In this document: positions 10,012-43,099 of the stretch, in pieces
Layout of the letters: each line of letters opens with the position of its first letter
Position numbering within the stretch: position 1 is the stretch's first letter
DNA from: Candidatus Dojkabacteria bacterium
GTDB taxonomy: Bacteria > Patescibacteriota > Dojkabacteria > B142 > WJKM01
Length of the DNA stretch: 60,588 nt
Direction: 5' to 3'
NCBI GenBank assembly: GCA_014729085.1
Contig: WJKM01000011.1
Span: 110,264 to 170,851 of the forward strand
Notes under the pieces: model-generated
Told to the model about the DNA's origin: nothing
The model's input: only the letters and a program-made list of their open reading frames with translations
Database searches by the model: none
Made by a program: the position numbers and the translations under genes

Positions 10012-10659
10012 ATGATCGTTTATGAAGACAGGCAGGATGCCGGCGAAGGTCTTGCAGACGAATTAATTAACTACAAAGATAATAATCCATATATATTTGC
10101 TCTCCCAAGAGGAGGGGTTCCGGTGGCTTATCAAGTCTCAGAAAAGCTTAAGTGCCCCCTGGATATAATTACAGTAAGAAAACTTGGGGTTCCATGGCAT
10201 CCTGAGTTTGCATTTGGAGCAATAGCACCAGATGGTGTTAAAGTAATACATGAAGATGTAGTTGACAGACTAAACTTAACAAAGGAACAGATCGAGAGAG
10301 TAAAAAGCGAAGAGATAGAAGAAATGGAAAGAAGGACAAAGGTGTACAGAAAAAACCTTGACTATCCAAACCTTGCAGAAAATACGGCAATAATAATTGA
10401 TGACGGAATTGCAACAGGTGCTACTATGCACGCGGCTGTAAAGTTTGTCAAAAAACTGAAGCCTGAACGGACAATTATTGCGGTTCCTGTTTCGGCAGGC
10501 GATTCTGCTGATAAATTGCAGGAAGAAGTGGATGATTTCATATGTCCAAGCATTCCCCCGAATTTCAGTGCTGTAGGACAATGGTATAGAAAATTTACTC
10601 AGACAAGCGATGAGCAGGTAATTAAACTTCTGAAAAAGTCAAAAAATAATCTTAATTAA
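10012..10659 (+). CDS. phosphoribosyltransferase (COG1926 type)
   Basis: 215 aa. The PRPP-binding loop is clear: IIIDDGIATGAT (about 126-137). An upstream flexible-loop region begins ALPRGGVPVAYQ (about 32-43), typical of the predicted phosphoribosyltransferases often found beside stress genes. Substrate base or role is not established for this group. It heads a tight set with yjbQ (7-nt gap) and polX (overlap), so the three are probably one transcript. A TATAAT at 9973-9978 lies just after the preceding terminator and may be its promoter. Confidence 0.88.
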   Translation: MIVYEDRQDAGEGLADELINYKDNNPYIFALPRGGVPVAYQVSEKLKCPLDIITVRKLGVPWHPEFAFGAIAPDGVKVIHEDVVDRLNLTKEQIERVKSEEIEEMERRTKVYRKNLDYPNLAENTAIIIDDGIATGATMHAAVKFVKKLKPERTIIAVPVSAGDSADKLQEEVDDFICPSIPPNFSAVGQWYRKFTQTSDEQVIKLLKKSKNNLN

Positions 10660-32536: not shown

Positions 32537-33598
32537 CTAATCATTTACCAATGCTAATAATCTTTCATGAATAACATGCCAATCTTTATTTAAATCGACT
32601 GTCTTTATACTTACCTTTTGTCCCTGAATCTTATACTCCAAATTCAATTCCCTATCTATTGTAGGGTATAACAACATCCCTTGGACTTCTTGTCCGGGAA
32701 ATTCTTCTTTATAATTCTTAATATAAGCAAAAATTTGATATAGATTATTTGAATCAATAATCATTTTGTCGTAGTGTTTTTTTAAAGTAGTCTTATAAAA
32801 CTTAGTATCGATTATGTACTTTATTTCCCCACAACTAATCGAAATATCTGTTTTCATCTTTGGGAGATACTGCTTAGAAAAACCAAAAACAGGTTCATCA
32901 AGAATCCATTCAATAGCCTCAGAACGCACATTTGAATCTGGAAATTTCTTATAAAGTTCAATTTCATAGAAATTTCTTACGAAATTCTCAAAAACCATAG
33001 CCATTGTAGATTCCTCTTTCACGAAATTCCTGAATTTAATCTTTCCATCTTCCTCATCTAAAAATAAATTTTTTAGAATTACTTCACAAATGTTTAATAA
33101 AAACTCATAGAAACTATTATTTCTATCTATACGGACCATTTTGAAATGTTTCTTCTGGATTTCGATTTCATCAACTTCCCGAAGATACCTATAATACCCC
33201 ACTAAACTTGCTTTTATCTCAGTATCAATTTCCTTTGAACTTAATAACTTTCTTATTGTAGATTTGATAATTTTATTAGGTAAGATATTAATACTAAACT
33301 CATCAAATTCACAATGTAGAGATGCCTTTATAAAGCTTAGCGAGTTAAATGTTTCATTGAAAATAATCTTTCCTTTTACACCTTTAATCTCCTGATTATT
33401 TAAAATATAATTTTTTTGAAACCCCTTCTTATACAGATAATTTAACCCATTTGCTAAAACTTTAGCGAAGAGATTTATCAAATCGGTATTTTCATACGAA
33501 CTAATCGAGGCAATTTCAGATTCAGGCAGTTTTTTCCATGCGTATGAAAGCATGAAGTATATATTTTTTATTGGTATTGTTGTAATCTTCGTTTCCAT
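32537..33598 (-). CDS. mcrC: McrC nuclease subunit of an McrBC restriction system
   Basis: 353 aa, normal size. The N-terminal region contains IPIKNIYFMLSYAW, typical of McrC proteins. The PD-(D/E)xK nuclease core lies at about 255-285: PKMKTDISISCG then YIIDTKFYK (Asp, Asp-x-Lys). Together with the McrB motor it cuts DNA bearing modified bases. It begins 4 nt after the mcrB stop, so translation is probably coupled. Confidence 0.93.
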   Translation of the reverse strand: METKITTIPIKNIYFMLSYAWKKLPESEIASISSYENTDLINLFAKVLANGLNYLYKKGFQKNYILNNQEIKGVKGKIIFNETFNSLSFIKASLHCEFDEFSINILPNKIIKSTIRKLLSSKEIDTEIKASLVGYYRYLREVDEIEIQKKHFKMVRIDRNNSFYEFLLNICEVILKNLFLDEEDGKIKFRNFVKEESTMAMVFENFVRNFYEIELYKKFPDSNVRSEAIEWILDEPVFGFSKQYLPKMKTDISISCGEIKYIIDTKFYKTTLKKHYDKMIIDSNNLYQIFAYIKNYKEEFPGQEVQGMLLYPTIDRELNLEYKIQGQKVSIKTVDLNKDWHVIHERLLALVND

Positions 33599-33601
33599 AC
33601 T

Positions 33602-36600
33602 TTAATCTAGACTTTCCTGTAATTCATCATACCTTTCCAAATCATCAAAGAAGTATTCTTGCAACAATGGTTTAACCTCAAGTTCTACAATACTTGTGTA
33701 CCATTCTGATTCATCTTTTACAGCTTTAGTTGGTGTGAAAAAACTATGACCTATCAGAAATCCTTCTCCGAGCCTTGTATTATCTCTTTCAATTTCCTCA
33801 TTTAATCCCTTAATCTTTTCAATTATTTTTTCAATTCTTTCCTTTGAGATACCAAATTTATCAAGATAATCACGAAAGTTATCATTGAAAGCAGGTCTTA
33901 AACTAATGAAACTAAACCTCCTCCTCAACGCATAATCGACCATTGCTAGGGATCTATCTGCTGTATTCATGGTCCCGATCAGAAAGATATTTTCAGGTAT
34001 ATAAAACTTTTCACCAGAATAAGGAAGGATTACCTCAAAATCTTTTCCTCTCTTGTCAGCTTCTATAAGCAGCATTAACTCTCCAAGTATCTTACTTAGA
34101 TTCCCTCTGTTTATTTCATCAATAATCATAAAATAATCATGCTCTGGATCTTCTTTAGCATCTTTGCACATCTTGTAAAAAGTACCATTCCTGAGAATAA
34201 AACCCCCATCTTCTGTCGGACGATATCCTTGAATAAAATCCTCATAGGAATAAGATTGATGAAACTGAACCAAACGGATCTTTTTTGGATCTTTCATTCC
34301 CATATGACAATAAGCGAGTCTTTTTGCAATAAAACTTTTTCCAACACCTGGGGGTCCTTGCAAGATAATATTTTTCTTGTATTCTAATGCGTTTAAAATA
34401 TTCTGGAAATCATTCTCTTCCATAAATAAATCTTCAATAGCATCAGTTAACGTATATCTATCAACCATTATTTCTGTCTTAGCAACACTTGTATTCAAAT
34501 TAAGGTTACGACCTAACTCTTCAGATATTGAACTCAATATAGAAACTAGTTCAGGCGGAAGTTTTGTAATGTATTTGCCCTGAGCAAGCTTTAAATCCTT
34601 TGTATAAAACACACTATTGTTTTTATTCAATTCCTTAAGTGTTTTTTTAAACTTTTTATTTTCTAACAAATCTCCATAAATACTGATGGGTTTTTCAAAA
34701 CGTGTAAATTTTTCAAGTTTCACTTTATAACAAGGCAGTCCTCCCCACTCAGTATTTTTCAATTCATTATTACTCGTAAATTCCTGAAATCTGTTTTTTA
34801 CCTTTGATATACCAACAATCTCTTTATTATCAATTAGATGTAAAACATAATCTCCTTTATTCAGTTCCCTCATATCCGAATATATGTCCTTACCGTCTCT
34901 ACTTTCTTTAGGGGACCAAAGGTAAGATCCTAATCCATATTTTTCTCCCTCTTTCCGTGTGGGTCTATTTGAAATAATAGTCTTCTCTATCCATACTTTT
35001 TGCTGTTTCTCCTTTATTGCTTGTAGCAATTCTTTAACATACTCAGAATACTTTGTTAAGTTAGTCAATGTCTTTACAACAAGATTAATTTTATTGTCTG
35101 AAATATCAATTGTTTTTTCATCAATCCATTCCACCTTGCGTAAATGAGGATATTCTTCCCTTGATTCATCATAGTAATAATCAGAGGCTACTTTAACTAA
35201 TCCATTTATTTTTTCAGCTCCGGATTTAATAAAAACCAAATCACCTTTATCAATTTCGTTGACAAATTCCCAACAAGCAAGAGAATCATTCATCTTGCTT
35301 GATCCATTGTCTTTCAAACTTTCGATCTCTATCATTTTTTTTCTCAATTCTTCTTTGCTTCTGTAATTCCGTAAATCACCTAACTCTTCATGAAAGTTTA
35401 TTGCTATTACATTGTTTTCTTTGAAATCATTAAGTAAGCTTCCTGATGGTCCAGCTGAGATAATCCAGTATTTCTGGCTACCTTCTATATACGATTCTTT
35501 CCAAACAAAAAAGAAGTCCTGACCGTCTAGGGCTGTTACACCAGGTTTAACTTTTATATTTTTTAGTTCGATCACCTTAAGCAACTTCTCCTCTTCCAAG
35601 TATTTTCCAACCAAAAGACAACACTCTGCAAATACCTTATATTTCATCCCGATAGATATAGATTTCCATTCCTCATCCATTTGCAAGACGCTCTTCAATT
35701 TCTGGTATACCTGATCTTTAAACAATGGATATTTTGAATAATCATAGAGAGCTAACAAATACCCAATTAACGCTGTTCCCCAGCTTGCTTTTGAATAAAA
35801 TTCCTTAACTTTTTCTCGGAAAGTGTTTACCCTTACCGCTAAGTCCTCAGATTCATCGAATAGGTCTTTTAATATCAATACCAATTCGGAAGGATATTCG
35901 AGTGCAAACTTCTTGAGATTATCAAGTTCACTCCAATGAACCCAGCTTCCGTTTTGTGGATTTCCTTGAATTAATTTCTCTACTATCTCCTGAATATTAT
36001 CTTCGGTAAATTCATCCTTAAATATTTCTTTTCTTATTTTTGGTAATTCTTTCCATTTATACTCTTCTTTCCAGACCTCAGTATTTATGTTGTTCCTATC
36101 ATCTGCATATTGTCTTATCCATGCGACCCATTTCTCATTGGTCGTTAACTCTTCCAAATCTAGGTCGAAATAAGTCATAAGATCTATACCTTCTTTAATC
36201 TCTGTTCCAAAGTGCATAATACTATCAATAACCAAAAAATCTAGAGACTTATCTAAGCTCTGCAAATATTTATAACCGTCTGATAACTTTTTGTATTTCT
36301 CTTTCACTGATAACTTTGAGGTGTTTAAATTTATCCCTAATAACTTAAAAAATGTTTCCGTTTTGTTATTCCAGTTAGGGAGTGTATCAGGAAATTGTAC
36401 ACCAAATAGAGGGGTCCAGAATGCCTTAGCATAGTACCTAAGTTTTAAATCACCCTCAAGTATCCTTTCCGCCTTTCGAAATGGTGAATCATCTGATTGT
36501 ATAAGGTATATCAAGATTTCTTTGAGATCTTTAATACTTCCTCTTATCCTGGATTCCCCTAGATTTATATAAGCTGGTCCATCCAAACTCCTTGAGTATT

Positions 36601-36799
36601 CATATATTATTTTAAAAAACTCATTATCATCCAACTCATTTAAGTTATCGATATTTAGAATGCTATTCTCAATCTCTTTGTCTCTTTGCCTTTTTTTCCT
36701 ATGATATTCTTTTTCCTCTTCACGTGAATCTAACCAATTCTTGTAGGACTTAAGTAACTGTATCAATTTATCTTTGTCTAAGCTAAAAGGATTTTCCAT
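33602..36799 (-). CDS. mcrB: McrB-type AAA+ GTPase/ATPase with EVE-like reader domains
   Basis: 1065 aa, more than twice E. coli McrB (about 459 aa). The C-terminal motor has Walker A GPPGVGKS (about 818-826), Walker B FMIIDEINRGNLSK and the McrB signature GTMNTADRS (about 937-945). The long N-terminal half includes two candidate modified-base readers: an EVE-like domain at about 416-556 (QKYWIISAGPSG to KGDLVFIKSG) and a second EVE-related domain at about 605-700 (SYLWSPKES to KGDYVLHLID). The first 400 residues are helical and unassigned. The target is probably hypermodified phage DNA, by analogy with other EVE-McrB proteins. Confidence 0.9.
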   Translation of the reverse strand: MENPFSLDKDKLIQLLKSYKNWLDSREEEKEYHRKKRQRDKEIENSILNIDNLNELDDNEFFKIIYEYSRSLDGPAYINLGESRIRGSIKDLKEILIYLIQSDDSPFRKAERILEGDLKLRYYAKAFWTPLFGVQFPDTLPNWNNKTETFFKLLGINLNTSKLSVKEKYKKLSDGYKYLQSLDKSLDFLVIDSIMHFGTEIKEGIDLMTYFDLDLEELTTNEKWVAWIRQYADDRNNINTEVWKEEYKWKELPKIRKEIFKDEFTEDNIQEIVEKLIQGNPQNGSWVHWSELDNLKKFALEYPSELVLILKDLFDESEDLAVRVNTFREKVKEFYSKASWGTALIGYLLALYDYSKYPLFKDQVYQKLKSVLQMDEEWKSISIGMKYKVFAECCLLVGKYLEEEKLLKVIELKNIKVKPGVTALDGQDFFFVWKESYIEGSQKYWIISAGPSGSLLNDFKENNVIAINFHEELGDLRNYRSKEELRKKMIEIESLKDNGSSKMNDSLACWEFVNEIDKGDLVFIKSGAEKINGLVKVASDYYYDESREEYPHLRKVEWIDEKTIDISDNKINLVVKTLTNLTKYSEYVKELLQAIKEKQQKVWIEKTIISNRPTRKEGEKYGLGSYLWSPKESRDGKDIYSDMRELNKGDYVLHLIDNKEIVGISKVKNRFQEFTSNNELKNTEWGGLPCYKVKLEKFTRFEKPISIYGDLLENKKFKKTLKELNKNNSVFYTKDLKLAQGKYITKLPPELVSILSSISEELGRNLNLNTSVAKTEIMVDRYTLTDAIEDLFMEENDFQNILNALEYKKNIILQGPPGVGKSFIAKRLAYCHMGMKDPKKIRLVQFHQSYSYEDFIQGYRPTEDGGFILRNGTFYKMCKDAKEDPEHDYFMIIDEINRGNLSKILGELMLLIEADKRGKDFEVILPYSGEKFYIPENIFLIGTMNTADRSLAMVDYALRRRFSFISLRPAFNDNFRDYLDKFGISKERIEKIIEKIKGLNEEIERDNTRLGEGFLIGHSFFTPTKAVKDESEWYTSIVELEVKPLLQEYFFDDLERYDELQESLD

Positions 36800-38353: not shown

Positions 38354-38764
38354 TCAGTGCTTAATGGCGTTCGTGCCTCCTGTTTTCCCATCAATCTTGT
38401 CTGCAAAGTCACTAATAATTACTTTAATATTCTGTTCTTGTTTAACTGTATCGTCTGCTTTATCAAATCCTAACCACTTGCCTATTAGCCTTATTGCTCT
38501 TATAGCCTCATTATTATTATTTGTGGTCTTTTGTATCTCATTTAACCGGTTTAGGTAAGTCTCTTTTTTCATTTCCATTTTCTCTCTTGTCTGCTTTTGT
38601 ATCTGTCTTAAATACTCTTGTATAGACTTTTTACTCAAAAGCCGAGAAGCTTGTTCTGTGGCTGTCTTTGTACTATAACCTGCACGTATTGCAGCCTTCT
38701 TACCGTTAAAATCTATCGAGTATTCTTCACAAAATCTTTTCTGTTTTACTGTCAAGTTTTTCAT
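38354..38764 (-). CDS. terS: phage terminase small subunit (TerS)
   Basis: About 136 aa from the ATG at 38764, which gives MKNLTVKQKRFCEEY, the usual start of this family; the frame stays open 10 codons further. The N-terminal helix-turn-helix reads FCEEYSIDFNGKKAAIRAGY, then TATEQASRLLSKKSIQEYL. The middle helices would form the oligomer ring. TerS recognises pac or cos DNA for packaging. There is no large terminase, portal or capsid gene in the window, so this looks like a satellite or remnant rather than a full prophage. It is divergent from the gene at 38909. Confidence 0.85.
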   Translation of the reverse strand: MKNLTVKQKRFCEEYSIDFNGKKAAIRAGYSTKTATEQASRLLSKKSIQEYLRQIQKQTREKMEMKKETYLNRLNEIQKTTNNNNEAIRAIRLIGKWLGFDKADDTVKQEQNIKVIISDFADKIDGKTGGTNAIKH

Positions 38765-38855
38765 ATAAATTGAAATATTAACTTTTATTAACATAGAAAT
38801 ATTTAATAATATTTTATTACACTTGATATAATTTCTTAAAATTTAAAATATTAAC

Positions 38856-38908: not shown

Positions 38909-39925
38909 ATGAACATTCTTGATTTACCTGAAAATAAAGCCATCCTTCTAATCCATAATCTCGAGAGTTCTTCTTTTAAAAATCAGGAAAGCTTAAAACA
39001 TTGTTATCGCTTTTTCCTTGAATTTTTATCGAAAGGAAAATTTGATATTCATAAAGACAACATCTTCAAAATAGGTGAGATAAGAAAAAAATATTCTGAT
39101 GGAAACCAAGGATTTGAAACTATTCTAGTCAACAATAATAAAGCCTTTATTAAAAGAGGGGATCAATTGATTCTAACAAAAGCAAAAAGAGTTCCTGAGA
39201 CGCGAAGAACATTTGGCAAGCTATCTTATGAAATTGTGGTCTCAAATATCAATAATGAACACGAAACATTCCCCGAGCTCATCCCATTTGAAAAATATAT
39301 AATTCCCATTTACATAAACTACGCGAAGCTTATTGAATTAACTTTTGAGAAAATTTACAATATCAAATCCAAACATCTTCAATCCGAAAAAAACAGCCAC
39401 ACTGAAATTGAATTAGGATATTTAAACCAATTACTCCAACCATATGAAATATCAAGGGCAAATGAGATTGCAGAAGTCTTTCATTTCACCAAACTAAAGC
39501 AGTATGAAGATCTGAATAGGTGTTATTATTTTATATATAATCAAAGCAATCGTTTGATTAGTGAAGTAAAGAAAATTGTTTCTGAATATGATAAAGCACC
39601 AAATCTCTTAAATGCAAAATCAGCAACATATAAAAAAATCAAATACGAAGGTGTTAACGTATGGGATTCTGAAGATGGTTTTTCATGCGCTCCGGACAAT
39701 ACTGCAAAGATCTCCGAAAAAAATATCCTTCTCTTTGAAAGGACAAGAGATCTCTTAGTTTGGGAATACTGTAACCACATTGCAAAAAACAAAAAAACTT
39801 GTGACAATTGCGGACACTTCTTAAAAAAGGATTATCGTGGTAAATACTGCCCTAAAGAAGATAATCCGAATTGTTATAAACAGAGGGAGGTTTTACGTAA
39901 AAGAAAAAGCAGGAAAAATAAATAA
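38909..39925 (+). CDS. unknown element protein with C-terminal zinc finger
   Basis: 338 aa. About 290 residues of helical, charged sequence are followed by a zinc-binding end: TCDNCGHFLKKDYRGKYC then CYKQREVLRKRKSRKNK (Cys at about 305, 308, 322 and 330). Such basic zinc fingers at the very C-terminus suggest DNA or RNA binding. It is preceded by the pseudoknot leader at 38856. It could be the replication or control protein of the element, but no known Rep motif is visible. Function unknown. Confidence 0.65.
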   Translation: MNILDLPENKAILLIHNLESSSFKNQESLKHCYRFFLEFLSKGKFDIHKDNIFKIGEIRKKYSDGNQGFETILVNNNKAFIKRGDQLILTKAKRVPETRRTFGKLSYEIVVSNINNEHETFPELIPFEKYIIPIYINYAKLIELTFEKIYNIKSKHLQSEKNSHTEIELGYLNQLLQPYEISRANEIAEVFHFTKLKQYEDLNRCYYFIYNQSNRLISEVKKIVSEYDKAPNLLNAKSATYKKIKYEGVNVWDSEDGFSCAPDNTAKISEKNILLFERTRDLLVWEYCNHIAKNKKTCDNCGHFLKKDYRGKYCPKEDNPNCYKQREVLRKRKSRKNK

Positions 39926-40009
39926 AAAATGTCACAAGTCTGAACAAGCTTCAAATACCCGATAGATTTACTGAGAAAATAAATTAGTTAAATTTACTAA
40001 TTTATTTTT

Positions 40010-40315
40010 ATGTTTATTCAATCTTTAAACTCCATAGTTCCAATACTAGAAAAACTCTTATCTTCAAATCCTAACCGCTCCCTCTCTGGAATTTTTAAAT
40101 CACTCAGAAAACAACCGCGTATAGATTTAATAGGTGACTATCCCCTTTTAAGTTTTATTATCCGTTATGGGCATTCTAGAACTCCACAATACCTCTGGAA
40201 TAGAAATCAAGTACTCAGAGCAGTAAGAATTTCAGAATTTTATAAAGATGAGGGAAGAAAGCAAGCTTATGTATCCAAAGAATGGAATAAATTCTTAAAG
40301 GAAAGCAATGACTAA
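40010..40315 (+). CDS. hypothetical element protein, 101 aa
   Basis: Basic, soluble protein. No motif recognised; the sequence LSFIIRYGHSRTPQYLWNR and the Arg/Lys content hint at nucleic-acid binding. It overlaps the next small ORF by 8 nt (40308-40315), so the two are probably translated together. Function unknown. Confidence 0.6.
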   Translation: MFIQSLNSIVPILEKLLSSNPNRSLSGIFKSLRKQPRIDLIGDYPLLSFIIRYGHSRTPQYLWNRNQVLRAVRISEFYKDEGRKQAYVSKEWNKFLKESND

Positions 40316-40466
40316 GGAAAACGAACTTAAAAACCTTGATAACGATATTGAGCAATCTATAAATGATTATCTCAAGTTAGTCTGTAAATTTGTAAAGGAA
40401 CTGACCGAACAAGATTTTAATTTTAAAGAATTAACAAACAATGGGACCACCAGAAAAAATAAATAG
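40308..40466 (+). CDS. small hypothetical protein, 52 aa
   Basis: ATG at 40308 overlaps the stop of the previous gene as ATGACTAA. The product is helical: an acidic first half (ENELKNLDNDIEQSINDYLK), then VCKFVKELTEQDFNFKEL and a basic end. The overlap and normal composition argue for translation. No family recognised. The 87 nt after it contain an unusually GC-rich stretch (around 40466-40490) whose role I cannot name. Confidence 0.5.
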   Translation: MTKENELKNLDNDIEQSINDYLKLVCKFVKELTEQDFNFKELTNNGTTRKNK

Positions 40467-40553
40467 GACCCCGCGGATACGAGGCCCACCTAAACAATAT
40501 TAAAACCTACTAGGGAATTAAATACTGCTTATTTTAAATATTATACAACAATA

Positions 40554-40886
40554 ATGGATTACGATACCTTTGATCTTGATAATCTAGAAGTAAATATCAA
40601 AATCAACAAAAAAGGCTCAATGTTAGCACAAGTTGAACTCACTTATGGATCACTTAAACTATACGGTTATAGAGTAATGAAATCCGATCATGGAGATGGG
40701 CTTTTTATACAACCCCCATCGGTTAAAGCTCAGAACGGGAAATGGTTATGGCTAGTAAGGATTGACGATCAGCTTAAATGGAGTGAATTACAAAACCTAA
40801 TAAAAGAGGAATATAAAAATGCAGCAAAAGATTATAAGGATGACGAAGATGATATGACTATAGATCCGGATGATATACCATTTTAG
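40554..40886 (+). CDS. SpoVG-like protein with SSB-type acidic tail
   Basis: 110 aa. The core (about 10-85) resembles SpoVG: MLAQVELTYGSLKLYGYRVM then DGLFIQPPSVKAQNG, matching the family's strand order and the G-L-F-x-x-x-P-S signature. SpoVG proteins bind nucleic acid. The C-terminus is acidic and ends DDIPF, the same final residues as the tail by which single-stranded-DNA-binding protein recruits replication and repair enzymes. I infer that it binds DNA or RNA of the element and contacts host SSB partners. It lies upstream of the leader ORF and recombinase. Confidence 0.65.
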   Translation: MDYDTFDLDNLEVNIKINKKGSMLAQVELTYGSLKLYGYRVMKSDHGDGLFIQPPSVKAQNGKWLWLVRIDDQLKWSELQNLIKEEYKNAAKDYKDDEDDMTIDPDDIPF

Positions 40887-40909: not shown

Positions 40910-41140
40910 ATGTTAAATACAGAAACTTTATGGGAAATAATAGTAATTATATATATACAATTATTTATTATCTTCTTTTCTATACAAATATTATTTTATA
41001 TTTACTATCTAAATAGTTATAATAATCTCGGTGTAACACAATATATGACTAGAGTCTTGAAGTGGGCGTCTCTAACACGACTTCTAGTCTGTGTTACACC
41101 AAGGGACGCCCGCTTTATTTTTTACTTCTTATTCATATGA
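40910..41140 (+). CDS. small membrane-like leader ORF coupled to the recombinase
   Basis: 76 codons. The first half encodes a hydrophobic helix (WEIIVIIYIQLFIIFFSI). The second half runs straight through the structured RNA at 41030-41113. Its TGA overlaps the recombinase ATG (ATGA at 41137-41140), a classic sign of translational coupling. The second half has odd composition, as expected if its sequence is constrained by RNA structure. It may act as a leader peptide whose translation opens the hairpin. It could also be a chance frame in AT-rich DNA. Confidence 0.4.
   Translation: MLNTETLWEIIVIIYIQLFIIFFSIQILFYIYYLNSYNNLGVTQYMTRVLKWASLTRLLVCVTPRDARFIFYFLFI
41030..41113 (+). ncRNA. candidate switch RNA ahead of the serine recombinase gene
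   Basis: Two stem systems cross. The first is GGTGTAACACA (41030-41040) with TGTGTTACACC (41090-41100), continued inwards by GACTAGAGTC (41047-41056) with GACTTCTAGTC (41079-41089, one bulge). The second is GTGGGCGTCTC (41062-41072) with GGGACGCCCGC (41103-41113), 11 pairs including two G-U, followed by TTTATTTTTT, so it reads like a terminator. Only 2 nt separate the outer arms, too few to span both helices, so the two folds are probably alternatives. The recombinase ATG is at 41137. Confidence 0.55.
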
Positions 41141-42654
41141 AATACTTCATATACTGCAGGAAAAGTACAGAGAGTGACGAGAGACAAGCTTTATCTTTAC
41201 CAGCCCAACAAAGGGAATTAAAACAGCTAGCCATAAAAGAAAATCTGAATATTGTAGAGACTTTCCAGGAATCAAAATCAGCTAGAATACCAGGTAAAAG
41301 AACAATCTTTAAAGAGATGTTAAACAGAATCAAAAAAGGTGAAGCCGAGGGGATAATCTGCTGGGCTCTAAATAGATTATCTAGAAATTGGGAAGAAGGT
41401 GGGGAAATAATGCAACTTCTAACAGAAAACACTATTAAAGAAATTATCACACCAGATAAAAAAATAACTCGAGATAATACGAACGACATTGTTCTCGGAG
41501 TTGAGTTTGGACAGTCTTCTCAGTATTCCAAAGAACTCAGCAAAAATATTAAACGAGGCTTTAGAGAAAAATATGTCCGTGGACAATACCCTTTCCGAGC
41601 TCCTAATTTTTACCAGAATGTTGGAATAAGCAAATTTGACAAAAATATTGCTCCAAATCCAGATAATTCAGAATACTTTAAACCGTGGGTAAACTACATA
41701 ATCAAAGAAAAAGCAAGCCTGAGGCAAGCTTGTGAGTGGCTAAATAAACGAGGTGTAAAGACTAACAAAGGAAAAGATTTTCAAACTAGCACGGTCCACA
41801 GAATGCTTAAAAATCCAGTTTACTGCGGAGTATTACAATTTGGAGATTATCCCAGAAAACAGGGAACCTGGGAGGCTCTAATCTGTAAAAAGAAATTTAG
41901 AAAACTCCAAGATGTGTTAAGTATCAGAAGAAAGCCTCAATTTTATTCTCACTCTACAGCTTACAAAGGGCTTGTTATGTGTGCTCATTGCGGATGTTCT
42001 ATTACATGCACTCATAAAGTCAAAAACGGTAAAAGCTATATTTACTATCACTGTACAAAAAGACGCGGTAAATGCCCACAACCATATATCAAGGAAAGTG
42101 AACTTGAAGACCAGTTTTATGAGCATATATCTAAATTACAATTTGAAGATGGCTTTCTAGAAGAATGCAGGGAAAAATTGCAAACCATTGCTAAAAACGA
42201 GACTAAGGACCACAGAGAACGAAAGAGAAATTTTGAAAAGCATAAAGATGAGCTGGACCAAATGACAAATGAACTGATAGACATGAGGCTGAAAAAACAG
42301 ATAACTCAAGATGCCTTTGAGACTAAAAAATTAAAGCTGGATAAAGAAAAAGAAAAATTAAACGAGGTATACATTGATAATGATTTTAATCAAAAAAACT
42401 GGGTAGATAATCTAATGAATTTTTTTGAAGTCTGCGTATATGCTGAAATGATCTTTGATAATGGGAGTATTGAATGTCGTAGAGAACTTGTAAGAGTACT
42501 CGGTAAGAACTTAACTCTTGAAAATGGTGTATTGCGTTGGAAATTTAGAATGCCATGGAAATTAATGGTTTATGGGGAAAATCACGAAAAGTGTCCAAAA
42601 TGGTGGAGATGGCGGGAATCGAACCCGCGTCCAATGGAATTACTAGAAGGCTAG
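41137..42654 (+). CDS. large serine recombinase (integrase)
   Basis: About 505 aa. The N-terminal resolvase domain starts MKYFIYCRKSTESDERQ with the nucleophile S10, and continues with the helix NRLSRNWEEGGE. The recombinase domain (about 160-260, with TSTVHRMLKNPVYCGVL) and a zinc ribbon (CAHCG and a later HCTKRRGKC) follow, then a coiled coil (about 350-420, DELDQMTNELIDMRLKK). I chose ATG 41137 because the family begins there. The last 18 codons (RWRESNPRP and on) lie within the 3' end of the oppositely oriented tmRNA gene, so the original end was probably changed by integration. Confidence 0.92.
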   Translation: MKYFIYCRKSTESDERQALSLPAQQRELKQLAIKENLNIVETFQESKSARIPGKRTIFKEMLNRIKKGEAEGIICWALNRLSRNWEEGGEIMQLLTENTIKEIITPDKKITRDNTNDIVLGVEFGQSSQYSKELSKNIKRGFREKYVRGQYPFRAPNFYQNVGISKFDKNIAPNPDNSEYFKPWVNYIIKEKASLRQACEWLNKRGVKTNKGKDFQTSTVHRMLKNPVYCGVLQFGDYPRKQGTWEALICKKKFRKLQDVLSIRRKPQFYSHSTAYKGLVMCAHCGCSITCTHKVKNGKSYIYYHCTKRRGKCPQPYIKESELEDQFYEHISKLQFEDGFLEECREKLQTIAKNETKDHRERKRNFEKHKDELDQMTNELIDMRLKKQITQDAFETKKLKLDKEKEKLNEVYIDNDFNQKNWVDNLMNFFEVCVYAEMIFDNGSIECRRELVRVLGKNLTLENGVLRWKFRMPWKLMVYGENHEKCPKWWRWRESNPRPMELLEG

Positions 42655-43099
42655 TTTCCACAAGTTTGGTTTATTTTGCTTTTAAGGTCAGCTTATTATC
42701 AAAAATAAACAAAAAACAATAAGCTCCCAGTTTAGAAATACTTGGAGTTTTGTCCTAAACTAAAACAAAACTTTGCGCCTAATCTATTTAATGGACTTAG
42801 GATAACTCGATTAGGCCAGTTATTCCCAAAGTCTTCACAGAAGAGTCTTAAAAGACTAGCTTACTGCGAAAGCATATGCTGGCTGAGCGACAAGACCGGC
42901 AATTGAGTCTGAAAGAGCCATAAGGCCATTTCGGATCTTACCGAATGCGCTAGATAGCATAGCTACTAGTTTGTTTTTGCCAGTTAAATTTTGGCTTGAA
43001 CTTTGATAACGGAGTAAAGTTCGAGCCCCTGCTTTGCGGGGCAAATCTCCGACTTGCCAGCGAACTAGGGTATTTCCCTGTCGATGCCTGTGCATCCCC
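42601..43099 (-). ncRNA. ssrA: transfer-messenger RNA (tmRNA)
   Basis: On the minus strand the RNA begins GGGGATG and ends CATCTCC-A-CCA (42601); these pair as a 7-bp acceptor stem with one G-U. The T arm is GCGGG-TTCGATT-CCCGC, and the 5' region has the tmRNA-type GGCATCGACAGGG. The tag frame opens at GGC (42981) after TTTAACT and reads GKNKLVAML..., ending AYAFAVS before TAG at 42856-42858: 41 residues. A hairpin AGTCTTTTAAGACT follows the stop at once. At about 499 nt it is longer than usual (about 350-400 nt). It rescues stalled ribosomes and tags the product for proteolysis. The 3' end is the integration site of the neighbouring element. Confidence 0.92.

What the first reader, a model, noticed from the sequence alone, without database searches (positions are those of the whole stretch)
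41030..41140. Two competing RNA folds plus a coupled leader ORF ahead of the recombinase gene
An 11-bp stem extended by a 10-bp stem (41030-41100) crosses an 11-bp GC-rich stem (41062-41072 with 41103-41113) followed by a T-rich tract. With only 2 nt between the outer arms both cannot form fully, so they look like on/off states. A 76-codon ORF crosses the whole structure and its stop overlaps the recombinase ATG (ATGA). Ribosome position could therefore choose the fold: an attenuation-like control of integration or excision. The same DNA could instead be a recombinase binding site.
Basis: partly seen in the sequence, partly recalled or inferred. Interest (0 to 1): 0.65.

Follow-up and report, generated by a model that had tools for sequence, protein, structure and literature searches.

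The report
Conserved RNA switch before CPR recombinase genes
Just before a DNA-recombinase gene in an ultra-small (CPR) bacterium, the messenger RNA can fold in two mutually exclusive ways, and the same two-fold design, with entirely different but still matching sequences, precedes recombinase genes in dozens of other CPR bacteria, so it is very probably a real, undescribed on/off switch for mobile-element recombinases.

Summary
The stems are real at the stated coordinates and far beyond chance. The decisive evidence is comparative. The same layout lies between a -10 box and the start codon of large serine recombinases (LSRs) in 32 curated CPR loci: outer stem S1a, inner stem S1b, and crossing stem S2 whose 5' arm is in the S1 loop and whose 3' arm starts within 3 nt of the end of S1 in 31 of 32. 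All 21 core pairs change on both sides (99.7% paired; covariation score 1.18 against 0.24 shuffled, 0/500). The -10 box sits at a fixed distance, so transcription should start at the first base of S1. S2 is followed by a U-rich tract, and the two folds have nearly equal energy in the window (-32.5/-32.4 kcal/mol). Rfam has no such family. Recombination-site, guide-RNA and antisense-promoter ideas found no support. Best reading: an undescribed family of bistable 5'-leader attenuators, S1 = antiterminator (on), S2 = terminator/translation block (off). The trigger is unknown; nothing was tested at the bench.

The parts
40995..41023 (+). predicted recombinase promoter: -35 TTTATA, 17 nt, -10 TATAAT (41018-41023); start predicted at about 41030
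   Evidence: 10/12 match; the same -10 box at the same distance from S1 in the relatives; enriched over shuffles (best score 10.0 against 6.7; 10 loci score 11 or more, 0.26 expected)
41030..41040 (+). S1a 5' arm GGTGTAACACA, predicted 5' end of the mRNA
   Evidence: covariation in 32 loci
41047..41056 (+). S1b 5' arm GACTAGAGTC (inner stem)
   Evidence: inner stem of 5 or more bp found in 31 of 32 loci
41060..41073 (+). S2 5' arm AAGTGGGCGTCTCT, in the loop of S1
   Evidence: covariation
41079..41089 (+). S1b 3' arm GACTTCTAGTC (bulge at 41082)
41090..41100 (+). S1a 3' arm TGTGTTACACC
41102..41115 (+). S2 3' arm AGGGACGCCCGCTT, directly after S1
   Evidence: distance between S1 and S2 3' arms is -1 to 3 nt in 31 of 32 loci, 13 in L087
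41114..41125 (+). U-rich tract after S2 (terminator-like)
   Evidence: 6.8 T in 12 nt after the stem on average in relatives against 3.0 expected
41137..42654 (+). large serine recombinase gene controlled by the leader; its 3' end runs into the tmRNA gene
   Evidence: Resolvase 2e-18, Recombinase 7e-16, zinc ribbon 6e-11; tmRNA at 42601-43099 on the minus strand

Best explanation
The 107 bases from 41030 to the ATG at 41137 are the 5' leader of the recombinase mRNA and form a bistable RNA switch (attenuator). Transcription starts at the first base of S1. As RNA polymerase proceeds, S1b and then S1a close into a long hairpin with the S2 5' arm held in its loop; because the S2 3' arm follows S1 with almost no linker, a closed S1 excludes S2, polymerase passes, and the recombinase is made (on). 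If S1a does not close, S2 forms just as polymerase reaches the U-rich tract, ends transcription or blocks ribosome landing on the nearby start codon, and the recombinase stays off. Shown: the anatomy, its conservation and covariation, the fixed promoter spacing, the U-tract enrichment, the near-equal energies in the window. Inferred: mutual exclusion in the cell, which fold is on, termination against translation block. Unknown: what triggers the choice (own protein, antisense RNA, host factor, or just a kinetic race that sets a low basal level).
For: Covariation: 32 loci, S1 core 8 bp 100% paired with 30 distinct sequences, S2 core 13 bp 99.5% paired with 28 distinct sequences; arms of one locus pair only 46-55% with arms of another; all 21 pairs compensated, covariation 1.18 against 0.24 shuffled and at most 0.19 slid. 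Inner stem in 31/32. Wobble signature of RNA: with G.U and A.C scored alike, S2 has 51 G.U to 3 A.C and S1b has 17 to 4. -10 box at fixed distance. U-tract. Energies of the two folds balanced in the window and within a few kcal in many loci; in stepwise folding S1 wins from nt 71 and S2 from nt 87, when polymerase would be at the U-tract. A covariance model of one subtype finds 39 sites in 31 of 380 phylum genomes at E <= 0.001; 20 of 30 fetched have an LSR within 70 nt downstream. A second LSR of the same genome has its own copy (L121).
Against: No expression data. In some relatives (e.g. L051, L063, L095) the start codon is 4-5 nt from S2 and there is little room for a U-tract, so a pure terminator cannot be the rule. 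S1 is 10-20 kcal more stable than S2 in the L035/L047/L059/L091 group and 10-18 kcal less stable in the L092/L097/L098/L100 group, so balance is not universal. The element is absent from about two thirds of sampled LSRs and patchy on the tree (17 changes).
Confidence: 0.7

Rival explanations
1. Insulation: S2 is mainly a 5' terminator that shields the recombinase from read-through transcription from neighbouring genes, and S1 exists only to let the element's own transcripts through.
For: Known for IS elements ('mobile attenuators' upstream of transposases, PMC2965389). In the window genes lie upstream in the same direction (38909-40886). U-tract present.
Against: S2 lies downstream of the element's own promoter, and read-through and own transcripts share S1 and S2; no upstream segment complementary to the arms that could unbalance read-through RNA was found in 32 loci (z about 0.1).
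Confidence: 0.15
2. Antisense-RNA attenuator of pT181 type: a countertranscript of the leader binds S1 and lets S2 form.
For: Same logic of 5' hairpin against terminator (PMC4878617). S1a is almost free of G.U pairs and very variable between relatives, as expected if it must fold on both strands and carries specificity. Similar crossing stems precede a small gene and a possible replication gene in related elements.
Against: No sigma-70-like antisense promoter is enriched between S1 and 110 nt past S2 (7.4 against 7.6 in shuffles).
Confidence: 0.12
3. Leader-peptide attenuation: a ribosome on an ORF across the structure chooses the fold.
For: The ORFs exist in the window: 76 codons, or 31 codons from ATG 41045, with ATGA overlap.
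Against: Not conserved in relatives (9/32, unrelated peptides); the long ORF starts upstream of the predicted transcription start.
Confidence: 0.05
4. The inverted repeats are DNA sites: a recombinase attachment site, or an operator bound by the recombinase or a repressor.
For: S1a arms are near-perfect inverted repeats, and one overlaps the predicted transcription start.
Against: Spacing between arms differs by tens of bases between loci; no third copy of the arm in any locus; S2 and S1b wobbles point to RNA; the recombinase junction with the tRNA/tmRNA is at the other end of the gene.
Confidence: 0.06
5. Chance or generic terminator of the upstream genes with no role for S1.
For: Intrinsic terminators are common in gaps between genes (general knowledge); S2 with its U-tract resembles one.
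Against: Covariation of S1 and fixed promoter spacing.
Confidence: 0.02

Closest known systems
pT181/pIP501-type plasmid rep leader attenuators
   Same: 5' hairpin at the start of the mRNA competes with a downstream terminator-like stem; element-borne gene controlled (PMC4878617)
   Different: here the terminator 5' arm is held in the hairpin loop and excluded by adjacency instead of being paired by an antiterminator sequence; no antisense promoter found; controls a serine recombinase; CPR
5' terminators and 5'-UTR structures of insertion sequences ('mobile attenuators', IS200, ISPpu9)
   Same: RNA structure upstream of a mobile-element recombinase that lowers its expression (PMC2965389; ISPpu9 PMC8450116)
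   Different: those are mostly species-specific and of high sequence conservation; here a two-fold architecture is kept across many CPR lineages while the sequence is replaced; serine recombinases instead of IS transposases
Riboswitch expression platforms
   Same: antiterminator/terminator choice in a 5' leader with near-equal energies
   Different: no conserved aptamer-like unpaired core noticed; the conserved part is the crossing helices themselves; no Rfam match
Leader-peptide attenuators (trp type; Tn916 orf12, recalled from memory)
   Same: control of element transfer genes by termination
   Different: no conserved leader peptide
IS110/IS1111 bridge or seekRNA
   Same: structured RNA from the non-coding end of a recombinase element (PMC11187229)
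   Different: no match between leader and integration target beyond chance (own 6.5 against foreign 6.4 nt); different enzyme class

Membership tests
intrinsic-terminator attenuator (general kind) | two alternative, mutually exclusive 5'-leader helices | tested here: met
   exclusion itself inferred from geometry
intrinsic-terminator attenuator (general kind) | terminator stem followed by U-tract | tested here: met
   on average; weak in L051, L063, L095
intrinsic-terminator attenuator (general kind) | condition-dependent termination in the leader | not testable with these tools
   needs in vitro transcription or RNA sequencing
pT181-type antisense attenuator | convergent antisense promoter and countertranscript | tested here: not met
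   no enrichment of antisense promoter-like sites; consensus scan only
leader-peptide attenuator | conserved short ORF across the structure | tested here: not met
   9/32, unrelated peptides
known Rfam family | covariance-model match | tested here: not met
large serine recombinase attP/attB site | sequence shared with the element-chromosome junction | tested here: not met
   no further exact copy of the arm in the locus; no leader-target match
IS110-type bridge/seekRNA | loops complementary to target | tested here: not met
large serine recombinase (gene 41137-42654) | Resolvase + Recombinase + zinc ribbon domains | tested here: met

The most novel reading that the evidence does not exclude
A new RNA family, found so far only in CPR lineages, acts as a portable promoter-plus-switch cassette on mobile-element genes. 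Its hypervariable but perfectly paired 5'-terminal stem S1a is the specificity handle, read by a trans-acting partner that co-evolves with each element (its own recombinase or a countertranscript), giving each element private control of its own integration and excision.
Probability: 0.25. Interest if true: 0.78.

Novelty: new variant of a known kind. Interest (0 to 1): 0.63.

Why it matters
Little is known about how CPR bacteria, mostly uncultured and small-genomed, control gene expression or mobile elements. A structured leader kept by compensatory change in many CPR lineages, absent from Rfam and seen with a precisely placed promoter, gives a testable control point for the serine recombinases that sit next to their tRNA and tmRNA genes. 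It also adds a compact two-state attenuator design in which exclusion comes from helix adjacency. If it works on a purified polymerase it can be studied without culturing the host.

Tried and rejected
Leader-peptide control. Antisense promoter 3' of S1. Extra complement to the arms upstream or in the coding start, as in IS10-like fold-back of read-through RNA (no signal). Guide-RNA idea, leader against tRNA/tmRNA target (own 6.5, foreign 6.4 nt). Third copy of the S1 arm as attachment site (none). Rfam match of window and eight relatives. First neutral parse of S1 gave G.U 11 to A.C 15, partly from mis-set arms; curated arms gave S1a 6 to 1 and S1b 17 to 4, so the RNA wobble signature is firm for S2 and S1b only. 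Exact-pattern search of viral contigs for the GGCCGTC subtype found nothing; DNA similarity search found only the window itself. Model R2 from the window's own subtype found essentially its training loci plus weak sites, of which two lie upstream of other LSR genes. A control search in another phylum could not be set up. Literature searches found no description of this element (one query was rejected by the tool); only open-licence papers are held.

Full report
Observation. S1a pairs 41030-41040 with 41090-41100 (11 bp), S1b pairs 41047-41056 with 41079-41089 (10 bp, one bulge), and S2 pairs 41060-41073 with 41102-41115 (14 bp, two U.G), followed by TTTATTTTTTAC. The region folds 5.1 standard deviations better than its shuffles.

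Setting. The genome is a CPR bacterium of 1.6 Mb (identified by kinship with named CPR loci and the tree). The gene at 41137-42654 is a large serine recombinase with all three canonical domains. Its 3' end reads into the antisense of the 3' end of a tmRNA gene (Rfam, 42601-43099 minus). A promoter-like site at 40995-41023 puts the transcription start at about 41030, exactly the first base of S1.

The layout is conserved. Relatives of the recombinase were fetched by protein similarity. Upstream of about a third of the roughly 108 distinct recombinases lies the same order a-b-c-b'-a'-c' (a = S1a, b = S1b, c = S2). In 32 curated loci the S1a core (8 bp) is paired in every case with 30 different sequences, and the S2 core (13 bp) in 99.5% of cells with 28 different sequences; arms of different loci pair only 46-55%. 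On an alignment of the arms joined by constant spacers, all 21 pairs are supported by changes on both sides; the covariation score is 1.18, against 0.24 +/- 0.02 for 500 shuffles and at most 0.19 for slid partners. The arms were chosen because they pair, so the percentage paired alone is not a test. The independent parts are the number of distinct compensated sequences, the fixed geometry (S1 3' arm to S2 3' arm -1 to 3 nt in 31 of 32), the inner stem (31 of 32), the -10 box at a fixed distance from S1, and the rarity of such layouts in shuffled DNA (2 against 70).

RNA and not DNA. With G.U and A.C mismatches scored alike, S2 shows 51 G.U and 3 A.C and S1b 17 and 4, the signature of selection on RNA of the coding strand. 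S1a has almost no mismatches of any kind (6 and 1), so it does not decide the matter alone; that is left as an unexplained oddity.

How it probably works. In the window the two states have equal computed energy (-32.5 and -32.4 kcal/mol); over 32 loci S1 is the more stable in 20. In stepwise folding of the window leader S1 is the best fold from nt 71 and S2 takes over at nt 87, when the polymerase would be on the U-tract. T is enriched after S2 (6.8 of 12 against 3.0 expected; 69-91% in the first three positions). With S1a closed, the S2 3' arm has no linker with which to reach the S1 loop, so the two exclude each other (geometric inference). The simplest reading is S1 = antiterminator/on and S2 = terminator and ribosome block/off. 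The distance from S2 to the start codon is 4-44 nt, so where it is short the effect is likely on translation.

What sets the choice. Not a leader peptide: the 76-codon ORF begins upstream of the predicted start, and leader ORFs crossing S2 occur in 9 of 32 loci with unrelated sequences. No antisense promoter signal, no further complementary segment, no match to the integration target. The trigger remains unknown.

Distribution. A covariance model of the GGCCGTC subtype finds 39 sites in 31 of 380 genomes of the phylum at E <= 0.001; 20 of 30 fetched sites have an LSR starting within 70 nt, and six are orphan copies with a shared 3' flank, one of which keeps a fragment of the recombinase C-terminus. 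The same genome has a second LSR with its own copy (L121). The label is clustered but patchy on the recombinase tree (17 changes against 28.4 in shuffles), and near relatives differ by presence or absence of the whole promoter-plus-leader cassette (L080 against L086/L101, L104 against L103).

Known or new. Attenuation of mobile-element genes by RNA structure is a known kind (PMC2965389, PMC4878617, PMC8450116). This particular architecture is not in Rfam and was not found in the held literature. I therefore rate it a new variant of a known kind.

Noticed in passing
window 42560-42654; many loci: LSR reading frames in CPR commonly end inside the antisense of a tRNA or tmRNA 3' end (27 of 34 loci with the leader, 41 of 75 without, many different tRNAs), giving chimeric C-termini such as WRWRESNPR.
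   Followed up: partly
about 30 loci, e.g. L061, L080, L089, L092, L104: An inverted copy (about 75-190 bp, mostly 90-100% identical) of the recombinase 3' coding end lies upstream of the recombinase; in L092 and L076 a tRNA lies at or near that copy, as if each end of the element abuts a tRNA 3' end. Not seen in the window.
   Followed up: partly
L057 4270-4355, L044 923-1012, L038 4079-4156: Similar crossing stems upstream of a small gene (LPKEAIEEFKKLY..GIELSDEEA type), followed in L057 and L044 by a larger gene that might be a replication gene (function not tested).
   Followed up: no
L044 2100-2194 and L039 minus strand 10320-10453: A further subtype of the crossing stems (S2 arm AAAGCGGCATC), in L039 upstream of a zinc-ribbon protein gene.
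   Followed up: no
L133, L141, L147, L153, L156, L157: Orphan copies of the leader in six genomes with a shared flank (AAAAGTTCTTT...), three with an antisense tRNA within 400 nt; L153 keeps an LSR C-terminal fragment, so these look like deletion derivatives.
   Followed up: partly
L080 vs L086/L101; L104 vs L103: Promoter plus leader is present or absent as a unit between close recombinase relatives.
   Followed up: partly
32 curated loci, S1a arms: The outer stem is hypervariable yet almost free of G.U pairs (1 in 256 core pairs), unlike S2.
   Followed up: partly
window 42601-43099 minus: tmRNA found by Rfam (89.9 bits, 499 nt against a 374-nt model) but missed by ARAGORN; probably a large insert.
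   Followed up: no
window 32537-36799 and 38354-38794 (minus): McrBC-like restriction pair and a terminase small-subunit gene (Terminase_2, 3e-24) near the recombinase: possible element cargo.
   Followed up: no
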